Source of the DNA: Candidatus Nyctobacter psychrophilus
GTDB lineage: Bacteria > Vulcanimicrobiota > Vulcanimicrobiia > Vulcanimicrobiales > Vulcanimicrobiaceae
Length of the DNA: 64,000 nucleotides
Assembly: GCA_014305025.1 (NCBI GenBank)
Contig: JACRTY010000020.1
Span: 1-64,000 of the forward strand
Direction of reading: 5' to 3'
Position 1 is the stretch's first letter; the number at the start of each line of letters is the position of its first letter. The notes below the pieces were generated by a model. It was given only the letters and a program-made list of their open reading frames with translations, did not search any database and was not told the origin of the DNA. Of this stretch, positions 58,259 to 64,000 are shown in pieces. The translations under genes were made by a program, and so were the position numbers.

Positions 58259-59272
58259 ATGGCCGTCGCCGGTTTCGGACTCACACTCATCATTCTCGCG
58301 AGCATCATCGCGCTGATCGTCTTCTTGTACTATTTTCCGCTCGGCTTGTGGATTCGCACGATCGCCGCGGGCGTGCCGCTGTCGATCGCGTCGCTGGTCC
58401 GCATGCGGCTGATCGGCATTCAACCCGGCGTCATCGTCACCAATCTGGTCCGCGCCCGCAAAGCCGGTCTGCCGCTGACGATCGATCAGATGCAGTCGCA
58501 TTATCTCGCCGGCGGCAACGTCGAAGCGGTGACCTTAGCGATGATCGCGGCGCAACGCGCCCAGATTCCGCTCGAATGGCAGCGCGCCGCCGCCATCGAC
58601 CTCGCCGGACGCAACGTCGTCGAAGCGCTTCAACAGTCGGTGAACCCCAAGGTGATCGAGACGCCGACCTTTCAGGGGGTGGCGCAAAACGGCATCCAAC
58701 TCAACGTCAAAGCGCGCGTCACCGTGCGCACGAACCTCGACACGTATGTCGGCGGCGCGGGCGAGCCGACGATCATCGCGCGCGTCGGCGAGGGCGTCGT
58801 TTCCGCGGTCGGCGCTGCGGTCGATCATAAAGAAGTGCTCGAATATCCCGACCGTATTTCGCGCGCCGTGCTTTCAAAGGGACTCGACGCCGGCACGGCC
58901 TTCCAAATCGTCTCGATCGACATCGCCGACGTCGACGTCGGCAAGAACATCGGCGCCGAATTACAGACGTCGCAAGCCGAGGCCGACCGCCGCATCGCTC
59001 AAGCCAAGGCCGCCGAACGGCAGTACAGCGCGCTCGCGGCCGAACAGGAGCAGAAGGCCGAAACGCAGGCGATGCGCGCGCGCGTCGTCGAGGCCGAAGC
59101 GCAAATTCCGCAGGCCATCGCCCAGGCGTTCAACAGCGGCCACCTCGGCGTGATGGACTACTACCGGCTCAACAACATCAAAGCCGATACCGACATGCGC
59201 TCGTCGATTTCGAGCGGCGTCGCACCCGGCGATTCCGCGGCGGCACCGCAGACCAAGCCGCTCGGTCAATAG
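58259..59272 (+). CDS. floA: Flotillin-like protein FloA
   Basis: The product is 337 residues. An N-terminal membrane hairpin (about residues 5-50) is followed by the SPFH-like domain with [52 protein letters not shown] and the coiled-coil [31 protein letters not shown] region (about 240-295). FloA organises membrane microdomains. Its ATG is directly after the nfeD stop, the usual nfeD-floA pair. Confidence 0.95.
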
Positions 59273-59476
59273 ATGAAGACGTCCGCGCCCGTTGCGTCCG
59301 TGGAGGCATCCAATCCATTCGCCGCATTGGTCGGCACTCGGCAGGGCGGCACGGGGCCGCCGCCGGCGCCGGACCCGCCGACGCTGCTGACGGCGTTTGC
59401 CGGCGGGGCCGGATTGCTCGCGGCCTTTGTGCTGTCCGAGGCGCTCGCGCCCCCGCTCGCCTTGCGCGAACGGTGA
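59273..59476 (+). CDS. Small membrane-anchored protein
   Basis: The product is 67 residues, directly abutting the floA stop. A proline/glycine-rich hydrophilic half precedes one hydrophobic segment (TLLTAFAGGAGLLAAFVLSEALA). No family is recognised. The phoH frame is a continuation of the same reading frame after this stop, so a fusion or readthrough origin is conceivable. Confidence 0.55.
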   Translation: MKTSAPVASVEASNPFAALVGTRQGGTGPPPAPDPPTLLTAFAGGAGLLAAFVLSEALAPPLALRER

Positions 59477-59527
59477 ATCCGCCCGGCGCCGCGAACGTCA
59501 TCAGGACGGATATGCGGAGTTTGCGCG

Positions 59528-60477
<950 letters not shown>

Positions 60478-60481
<4 letters not shown>

Positions 60482-60942
60482 TCTACGTGCGCAACACGAC
60501 GCGCAAGCATGCGCTGCCGTTGCGCCGCATCGAGCGTATGACGCGTGCACTGCTCGCGGCAACCGGCCATCCGCAGGCATCGCTTTCCCTTAGCTTTGTG
60601 GGCGACGCCGCGATGCGCCGCCTCAACCGCGAACACCGCGGCTACGACTGCAGCACCGACGTCCTGAGTTTTCCGCTCTACGAGCCGTTCGCCGTGCCGG
60701 CCAAAGCACTCGACCGAGAAGCCGAGTTACTGCTCGGGGACATCATCATCAGCGTCGACGTCGCCGCGCGCCAAGCGCACGCGTACGAAGCCACGCTGGA
60801 AGCCGAAATAACGCGCCTCCTCGTGCACGGCGTTGCGCATCTCTTGGGATACGATCACGAAGAACCGCGCGAGCGCGCGCGCATGCGCCAAAAAGAGAGG
60901 ACGTTGGCCGCCGCCGTCGGTCTCGCGTGGCCTTACGAATGA
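60478..60942 (+). CDS. ybeY: Endoribonuclease YbeY
   Basis: The product is 154 residues from GTG 60478. It is a zinc-dependent endonuclease for 16S rRNA maturation and ribosome quality control. The signature is RLLVHGVAHLLGYDHEE near residue 115 (HGxxHLxGYDH), with STDVLSFPLYEP upstream. Its end overlaps the convergent oxidoreductase gene by ten bases. It follows phoH, its usual neighbour. Confidence 0.96.
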
Positions 60943-62430: not shown

Positions 62431-63332
62431 TTAAGGGCGGTTGCCGTACAGCGCGGCGGCGAGTCCGCTGAGGTCCTGGATGGTTGGAAGGGACGGGGCG
62501 CGTAGCGTGCACGCCGCGGCGTGCCGTGGAAGGGCTTCGCGTTCGAACGTCGTGTGCACGCGCTCGATCCAGGCGTCGCCGAGATAGGTCGCGAGACTGC
62601 CGAGAACGATGACGTCGAGGACCAGCAGATCGGCGAGTAGCGCGCAGGCCGAACCGACCGCAGCAGCGTTCTCTTCGAGTGCTGCGCGCGCTACCGTGTC
62701 GCCCGCTGCGGCGCGCTGAGCGACGTCCGCGCCATCCGCGGCGTGGAATGAGGCTTGGCGCCGGCGCGCGAGGGCCGGTAACGCACTCGCCGCGGCGTAC
62801 GATTCGAAACATCCCGGTTTTCCAAACACGCCGGGCCCATCCATCACGGTAACGCACGTGTCCCGAGTTCGGGTGATAACCCGCTCGAGCCGTAGCGGAC
62901 GCGGCCATCGATCACGACGCCGGCGCCGAAGCCCGTTCCGCAAGTCAAATAGGCAAGGCCGCGTACATCGCGGTCCGCGCCCCAACGCACTTCGGCGAGC
63001 GCGCACGCCGCGGCGTCATGGTGTACGCTGACGTGACCTGGGAAGTCCGCGCGCAGGCGTTCGGCGAGCGGGAAGCCGTGCATCCCAGGCAGGTGTGGTG
63101 GTGCAAGGACGATACCGTGCCGCGCATCCAGTGGGCCGCCGATCGCGACGCCCATGGCGGATGCGTCCTTAGCAATCAGCCGTAGTGCGGTGACGATCGC
63201 GCCGTAGAGCGCTTCTCCATCGGCCGCCTGCGTCGACCATGCGCGGCGCTCCAAAATCTGCCCCTGCTCATTTCCGACGACCACGCTGGTCGTCGTTCCA
63301 CCGACGTTCACGCCGGCGAGCAGTTGCGCCAT
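62431..63332 (-). pseudogene. ROK-family sugar kinase, disrupted by a one-base frameshift
   Basis: Two overlapping frames together form one ROK kinase of about 300 residues. The first frame starts at ATG 63332 (AAGGGG upstream): LLAGVNVGGTTTSVVV (ATP loop), GVAIGGPLDARHGIV, VHHDAAACALAEVRWG, LTCGTGFGAGVVIDGRV, then stops early after SPELGTRALP. The second frame resumes with TCVTVMDGPGVFGKPGCFESYAAASAL, the zinc-site region, and continues to 62431. Restoring one C between 62861 and 62862 gives ELGHT, the expected zinc-binding histidine. It is a recent pseudogene or a sequencing error. Confidence 0.8.
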
Positions 63333-63339
63333 ATTCCCC

Positions 63340-63942
63340 TTACAACCAGCCGCGCTCGCGCGCGATGCGGGCGGCTTCGACGCGATTGCCGGCCCCGAGC
63401 TTGCCGATCGCTTCGGACAGATAGTTTCGTACCGTACCTTCGCCCAGGGCGAGGCGTTCACCGATGGAAGCGGCGGACAGGCCGTCCCCGGCGAGCCGCA
63501 GGACCGAACGTTCGCGCTCGGTCAGCGGATCGGGTTCTGACCAGGACTCGAGCGCGAGTTGCGGATCGATCGCGCGCCCGCCGGCGGCGACGCGGCGAAT
63601 GCCCTCCGCAAGCTGCGCGGCCGGCGCGTCCTTGAGGAGATAACCCGCGACGCCCGCGTCGAGCGCGCGCCGTAGGTAGCCGCCTCGCGCGAAGGTCGTG
63701 ACGATCACGACGCGAGTCCCTAGCTTTTCATCACGTATCGCCGCAGCTACGTGGAGCCCCGAGCGGCCGGGCATTTCGATATCCGTGACGAGCACGTTGG
63801 GCCGGTGCGTTCGGACGAACTCGAGGGCCTCGTCGCCATCCTTGGCTTGGGCAACGATCTCGAGATCGCGTTCGAGCCCGAGCAGCGCCGCAAGCGCGCC
63901 CCGCACGAGCGCCTGATCTTCAGCAAGAACCAGACGGATCAG
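63340..63942 (-). CDS. NarL/LuxR-family response regulator, apparent CTG start
   Basis: The product is 200 residues from CTG 63942, overlapping the histidine-kinase stop as CTGA. The receiver needs LIRLVLAEDQALVRGALA (acidic pair) upstream of the first canonical start (GTG 63906). The phosphoacceptor is D54 in LVTDIEMPGRSG. The C-terminal LuxR-type helix-turn-helix is LTERERSVLRLAGDGLSAASIGERLALGEGTVRNYLSEAIGKLGA. It resembles DesR-like regulators. Its cognate kinase lies immediately upstream, mostly outside the window. Confidence 0.9.
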   Translation of the reverse strand: MIRLVLAEDQALVRGALAALLGLERDLEIVAQAKDGDEALEFVRTHRPNVLVTDIEMPGRSGLHVAAAIRDEKLGTRVVIVTTFARGGYLRRALDAGVAGYLLKDAPAAQLAEGIRRVAAGGRAIDPQLALESWSEPDPLTERERSVLRLAGDGLSAASIGERLALGEGTVRNYLSEAIGKLGAGNRVEAARIARERGWL

Positions 63943-64000
63943 CGTGTGCGCGCCACGGGAACAGTGAGCACAAGTTGCGTGCCGTTGGTGACTTCGCGCG
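63939..64000 (-). CDS. C-terminal tail of a sensor histidine kinase (partial)
   Basis: The last 19 residues before the stop read REVTNGTQLVLTVPVARTR, the typical end of an HATPase_c domain (GTQLVLTVPV). The rest of the gene lies beyond the right edge. It pairs with the overlapping response regulator. Confidence 0.65.
   Translation of the reverse strand, partial: REVTNGTQLVLTVPVARTR

What the first reader, a model, noticed from the sequence alone, without database searches (positions are those of the whole stretch)
62431..63332. ROK kinase frameshift at the zinc-binding histidine codon
The two frames fit together if one C is added between 62861 and 62862, turning GGGACACG into GGGCACACG (minus strand) and restoring ELGHT and the downstream DGP...GKPGC zinc motif. 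The deletion hits a catalytic-site codon while the rest of the gene is well preserved, indicating very recent loss, programmed frameshifting or an assembly error.
Basis: seen in the sequence. Interest (0 to 1): 0.5.

Follow-up and report, generated by a model that had tools for sequence, protein, structure and literature searches.

The report
Sugar-kinase gene broken twice, ordinary
In this draft genome of a bacterium a sugar-kinase gene carries two stray single bases about 20 bases apart that break its reading frame; this looks like a sequence error or a very recent gene loss, and nothing points to a new mechanism.

Summary
The lesion is not the one described. Aligned with 14 orthologues from the same family, the window carries two extra single bases, placed at 62864 and 62842. 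Between them a third frame keeps HVRYRD intact, with the motif histidine. A frame-aware alignment to the 13 frame-intact orthologues gains 37-47 score units from a second shift, so the histidine codon was not hit. The 'zinc motif' is absent from the clade: none of 15 sequences has the first two cysteines, and 9 of 15 have serine for the third. Since 13 of 14 orthologues have one frame across this place, programmed frameshifting is very unlikely. Both open parts show constraint like that between intact orthologues. Cause: somewhat more likely a sequence or assembly error in this 58-contig draft than a very recent loss; the survey of split genes does not separate the two, and reads would decide. 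One curiosity: another genome of the family (G118) has its own one-base lesion 3 alignment columns away. Low interest.

The parts
62847..63332 (-). 5' part of the ROK kinase gene, open frame of 162 aa from the ATG at 63332-63330 (NVGGT motif, HHDAAACALAE with the presumed catalytic Asp, SPEL of the ExGH motif)
   Evidence: PF00480 E 1.6e-27, profile positions 2-156; 71-79% identical to the eight nearest frame-intact orthologues
62844..62846 (-). TGA stop reached by the first frame; overlaps an ATG (62844-62842) of the last frame as TGATG
   Evidence: read in sequence
62861..62864 (-). first lesion: this GGGA stretch holds one base more than the corresponding stretch of all 14 orthologues; the alignment puts the window-only base at 62864, the exact base within the stretch is ambiguous
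62843..62860 (-). HVRYRD loop, intact in the third frame; begins with the intact histidine codon (CAC, 62860-62858)
   Evidence: HVRYR, HIRYR or HVRFR found in 15 of 15 sequences
62841..62842 (-). second lesion: one base more than in all 14 orthologues (window-only base placed at 62842; 62841 is the same letter)
62431..62841 (-). 3' part of the ROK gene up to its stop codon, DGPGVFGKPGCFE onward
   Evidence: PF00480 E 2.2e-08, profile positions 170-270, for 62434-62844; 71-79% identical to the eight nearest frame-intact orthologues
63340..63999 (-). upstream neighbour: LuxR-type response regulator (start codon not fixed here); its stop lies 7 bases before the ROK start
   Evidence: PF00072 and PF00196; coordinates

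Best explanation
This is an ordinary ROK-family sugar kinase gene of a Candidatus Eremiobacterota bacterium, shown here with two one-base excesses about 20 bases apart that put its two halves in different frames. Most likely the two excesses are consensus (sequencing or assembly) errors in one short bad patch of a draft assembly, and the living cell has an intact gene. If the sequence is right, the gene was lost so recently that I see no other decay in it. Shown: the two excesses, the intact loop between them, ordinary constraint on both sides, intact orthologues. Inferred: that the cause is an error and not a mutation, and the phylum (from relatives' record titles).
For: Two window-only bases against 14 orthologues, preferred over a single shift by 37-47 units with 13 of 13 frame-intact orthologues. 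They sit 22 bases apart as placed, in a 0.9 kb gene that otherwise has its start, stop and motifs and ordinary constraint: pN/pS 0.26-0.33 for the 5' part and 0.17-0.37 for the 3' part against the eight nearest frame-intact orthologues, in the range seen between intact orthologues. A tight pair of indels with no other decay fits one bad patch better than slow decay. The genome is a draft of 58 contigs, 93.15% complete. The same bin holds a 6 kb contig (C15) with a second rpoB end, 90% identical to the open rpoB on C53, that has one-base gaps against it and a TAA in the frame, so at least one contig of this bin is dubious. Indels in base runs that cause frameshifts are described for nanopore assemblies (PMC9262707, abstract and passages seen), but I do not know the platform used here, and the runs here are short.
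Against: The window lies on a 100,617-base contig on which this was the only split gene seen, among 43 homology stretches of at least 100 aa, so C20 is not generally poor. Split genes were not clearly commoner in this genome's sample (2 of 184) than in the one-contig relative G008 (5 of 247, four of which look to me like duplicated ABC-transporter domains). The first excess need not be in a G run: four orthologues (L115, L118, L119, L120) have GGG themselves there, so the extra letter may be the A. The C15 contig may be foreign or a true pseudogene copy. G118 has its own lesion 3 columns away, which would fit a gene that is easily lost. No reads were available.
Confidence: 0.53

Rival explanations
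1. The sequence is right and the kinase gene was lost very recently. The product ends after 162 aa and lacks the rest of the protein, so it is presumably inactive; two other ROK genes in the genome may cover for it.
For: 14 of 98 other genomes of the family have this orthologue at E <= 1e-25 (many of these genomes are incomplete), which suggests the gene is dispensable. G118 has an independent one-base lesion in the same gene. Two further ROK matches with open frames exist in the own genome (C32, C48). Other split genes exist in this genome's sample (L174, L165).
Against: No further decay seen in the gene, and constraint is in the range of intact orthologues. Two separate indels about 20 bases apart and none elsewhere is a tight cluster for random decay, unless one complex mutation made both.
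Confidence: 0.41
2. Programmed ribosomal frameshifting joins the frames and makes the full kinase.
For: Both halves are conserved and close together.
Against: It would need two forward shifts about 20 bases apart. 13 of 14 orthologues have a single frame here, so no shift signal is conserved. Folding of the window strand, done with DNA parameters, is not better than shuffles (z 0.30); RNA folding was run without shuffles only.
Confidence: 0.02
3. Two-piece protein: the first frame's TGA overlaps an ATG (TGATG), so ribosomes could restart and make the 3' part as its own 137 aa chain that pairs with the 162 aa N-terminal chain.
For: The overlap is in the sequence and the 3' chain alone still matches PF00480 (E 2.2e-08).
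Against: The HVRYRD loop with the motif histidine would be lost from both chains. None of the 13 frame-intact orthologues is built this way, and in G118 the lesion is different. One such overlap can easily arise by chance.
Confidence: 0.04

Closest known systems
ROK family (PF00480) sugar kinases, nearest NCBIfam model TIGR00744 (ROK family glucokinase)
   Same: The intact orthologue L119 matches PF00480 (E 1.1e-40) and, best of the NCBIfam models, TIGR00744 (E 9.1e-32) but below its cut-off (110.6 against 260.35 bits). Its closest solved chains by sequence are glucokinases 3vgk and 3vov. HHDAAACALAE and the E-x-G-H motif are kept.
   Different: The clade lacks the CxCGxxGC zinc cysteines; the window copy is frame-broken.
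Fusobacterium nucleatum NanK, a ROK kinase without the zinc site (PMC5458393, abstract and passages seen)
   Same: Lacks the zinc cysteines and keeps the other ROK motifs, so a ROK kinase without the site is nothing new.
   Different: Not compared as a pair here; 5nck_A, an N-acetylmannosamine kinase, is only a distant match to L119 (E 3.9e-09), and that it is this protein is my recall.
Frameshifts from indels in draft assemblies (PMC9262707, abstract and passages seen)
   Same: Single-base indels that split an otherwise normal gene.
   Different: That paper concerns nanopore base runs; the runs here are 2-3 bases and the sequencing platform of this assembly is unknown to me.

Membership tests
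ROK family kinase (PF00480) | whole-length match to the family profile | tested here: met
   Both parts match in order (profile 2-156 and 169-270); intact orthologue L119 matches 2-278 of 294
ROK family kinase (PF00480) | N-terminal nucleotide-binding motif DxGxT (motif as given in PMC5458393) | tested here: not met
   Window and the 14 orthologues read N-[VI]-G-G-T (window GVNVGGTTT): Asn in place of the Asp, the rest kept. Only this letter differs; the profile match is clear.
ROK family kinase (PF00480) | catalytic Asp in the active-site loop | tested here: met
   HHDAAACALAE in 15 of 15 sequences; that this Asp is the catalytic one is read from the alignment to solved glucokinases and recall
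ROK family kinase (PF00480) | ExGH sugar-contact motif | tested here: met
   E-[IL]-G-H in 13 of 13 frame-intact orthologues; in the window both pieces are present but in different frames
ROK family kinase (PF00480) | cysteine-rich zinc motif CxCGxxGCx(E/D) | tested here: not met
   None of 15 has the first two Cys; the third is Cys in 6 and Ser in 9 of 15. A zinc-free ROK kinase is known.
programmed frameshift gene | shift site and split frames conserved in orthologues | tested here: not met
   13 of 14 orthologues have one frame here; the fourteenth has a different lesion
assembly or sequencing error | extra bases absent from reads | not testable with these tools
   No reads are held

The most novel reading that the evidence does not exclude
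The ExGH codons of this kinase clade are a spot that breaks repeatedly: two genomes of 15 broke independently within 3-6 bases of each other, so the enzyme may be switched off and on by small indels there (phase variation), with the TGATG overlap letting the halves be made as two chains.
Probability: 0.03. Interest if true: 0.45.

Novelty: already known. Interest (0 to 1): 0.08.

Why it matters
It matters little beyond annotation. The gene should be annotated as a frame-broken ROK kinase with intact orthologues, not as a kinase with a lost zinc histidine. It also shows that a one-base reading made by eye can hide two lesions that a comparison with relatives reveals. If the paired lesion with G118 proved real in reads, it would mark a spot of repeated loss.

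Tried and rejected
Single deletion at the histidine codon: rejected, because the two-shift alignment is better with 13 of 13 frame-intact orthologues and the loop is intact in a third frame.

Programmed frameshift: rejected on the orthologues; window folding with DNA parameters was no better than shuffles.

Conserved neighbourhood to name the substrate: frames of at least 100 aa from bases 50,000-76,000 of the contig were compared with 17 loci round orthologues; only frames on or overlapping the ROK gene matched, so the substrate is not named.

Codon-usage frameshift scan: dropped. It gave 49 calls in own and 193 in G008, many at places that I take for gene overlaps and opposite-strand frames, and it did not call the gene in question.

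First homology scan for split genes: several of its calls come from queries that are themselves frame-broken (G118's own ROK frame) or that I take for non-genes. One search replaced it, but the rpoB-fragment and hipA-like cases come and are not among one search's 2 of 184. In one search, four of the five G008 splits and two of the three G111 splits look like duplicated domains matched twice; I judge so from overlapping query ranges. The G005 split row was counted but not printed, so I did not look at it.

One search's motif listing and one search's alignment were made before the loci on the minus strand were turned; one search replaces them. In one search the L116 fold row took a wrong stretch and is ignored.

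Papers: the search for the zinc motif string found 0 papers. Searches were seen as listings only;'s three papers and's listed papers one each was opened. Passages were read of PMC5458393 and PMC9262707.

I moved 0.02 from error to loss for that, and corrected the histidine codon to 62860-62858 and the distance to G118's lesion to 3 columns.

Full report
What is there. On the minus strand at 63332-62431 lies a gene of the ROK family in two open parts. The 5' part runs from the ATG at 63332 to a TGA at 62846-62844 (162 aa, PF00480 E 1.6e-27); the 3' part lies in another frame and ends at 62431 (PF00480 E 4.5e-08). The window is bases 1-64000 of contig C20 of a 58-contig, 3.22 Mb draft genome, 93.15% complete. 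The four nearest relatives of the gene in the named collection (75-79% identical) lie in records titled Candidatus Eremiobacterota; the window's own record is not named, so its phylum is inferred from kinship.

Orthologues. A search with the 5' part found matches at E <= 1e-25 in 15 of 99 genomes of the same family, the own genome included, hence 14 other genomes. These are loci L112-L122 and L003-L005. In 13 of the 14 the gene has one frame across the place in question; L113 is cut by its contig's end further down. The fourteenth (L117, genome G118) lacks one base, 3 alignment columns upstream of the window's first excess (3-6 allowing for placement).

The lesion. In the DNA alignment with these 14, the window has one window-only base placed at 62864 and one at 62842, and no column where the window alone has a gap. 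That gap test sees only columns where all 14 have a base, so not those beyond L113's end. Three further window-only bases at 63326-63328, one codon, lie at the very start, where I had cut the orthologues. The first excess lies in GGGA: four orthologues (L115, L118, L119, L120) have GGG before the histidine codon and others GG plus another base, so which letter is extra is not settled. Between the two lesions the third frame reads HVRYRD, as the orthologues do (HVRYR, HIRYR or HVRFR in 15 of 15). A frame-aware local alignment of 330 bases round the break to about 110 residues of each of the 13 frame-intact orthologues (the window itself and L117 left out) gave for one and two shifts, for example, 390 and 437 (L112), 372 and 419 (L119), 254 and 291 (L005). 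The second shift gains 37-47 in all 13 and a third 0-11. The two sites are the same in 12 of 13; L120 puts the second three bases away. No shift penalty was charged, so any penalty below 37 per shift keeps the second one.

Zinc. ROK kinases are described as having DxGxT, a catalytic Asp, ExGH and CxCGxxGCx(E/D), with three Cys and one His binding zinc (PMC5458393, passages). In this clade none of 15 has the first two Cys, and the third is Ser in 9 of 15. The first motif reads NxGGT. A zinc-free ROK kinase is in print (same paper). So 'zinc-binding histidine' does not apply, although the same His may still touch the sugar.

Constraint. The 5' part (152-153 codons) and 3' part (131-135 codons; 34 for L113) compared with the eight nearest frame-intact orthologues give pN/pS 0.26-0.33 and 0.17-0.37, in the range of pairs of intact orthologues. 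A short gap to the upstream response-regulator gene (stop at 63340-63342) suggests one operon with it and, further up, a histidine kinase and an ABC-2 transporter. The orthologue loci that I compared do not share these neighbours.

Error or loss. Among homology-supported genes of at least 300 bases in the sampled stretches, split frames were counted in 2 of 184 in the own genome (this gene and L174 at about 11846), 5 of 247 in G008 (four look like duplicated domains), 1 of 38 in G120, 3 of 31 in G111 (two look like duplicated domains), 1 of 9 in G118 (the ROK gene) and 1 of 14 in G005 (row not printed), and in none of the other six Eremiobacterota samples of 5-27 genes. An earlier scan showed two more in the own sample: a hipA-like gene in L165 (name recalled from the letters) and a second rpoB end on the 6 kb contig C15. 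The latter is 90% identical to the open rpoB on C53 but has one-base gaps against it and a TAA in the frame. That contig is either poor sequence, a foreign strain or a pseudogene copy; it weakens trust in the bin but does not settle C20. On C20 this was the only split gene, among 43 homology stretches of at least 100 aa. The rate alone does not separate error from loss. The tight pair of one-base excesses in an otherwise preserved gene tips me to error (0.53) over recent loss (0.41).

The G118 coincidence. Lesions in two genomes within 3-6 bases is striking, but the gene is 900 bases, I noticed it after looking, and the window's own two lesions give two chances. Folding shows no special structure in the window. 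I leave it as a lead.

Verdict. Ordinary: a frame-broken sugar kinase gene with intact orthologues, the description of the lesion corrected, cause open until reads are seen.

Noticed in passing
L117; L149 about 5688 (genome G118): The ROK orthologue of another genome of the family has its own one-base lesion, 3 alignment columns upstream of the window's first one.
   Followed up: partly
L175 (own contig C15, 1-1250): A second rpoB end, 90% identical to the open rpoB on C53, with several one-base gaps and a TAA in frame: dubious or foreign contig in the bin.
   Followed up: partly
L174 about 11846 and L165 about 18317 (own genome): Two further split genes, by their letters an aldo-keto reductase and a hipA-like gene (names recalled).
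   Followed up: no
58259-60942: FloA (PF12127) and PhoH (PF02562) genes side by side, followed by a frame that looks like ybeY (recalled).
   Followed up: no
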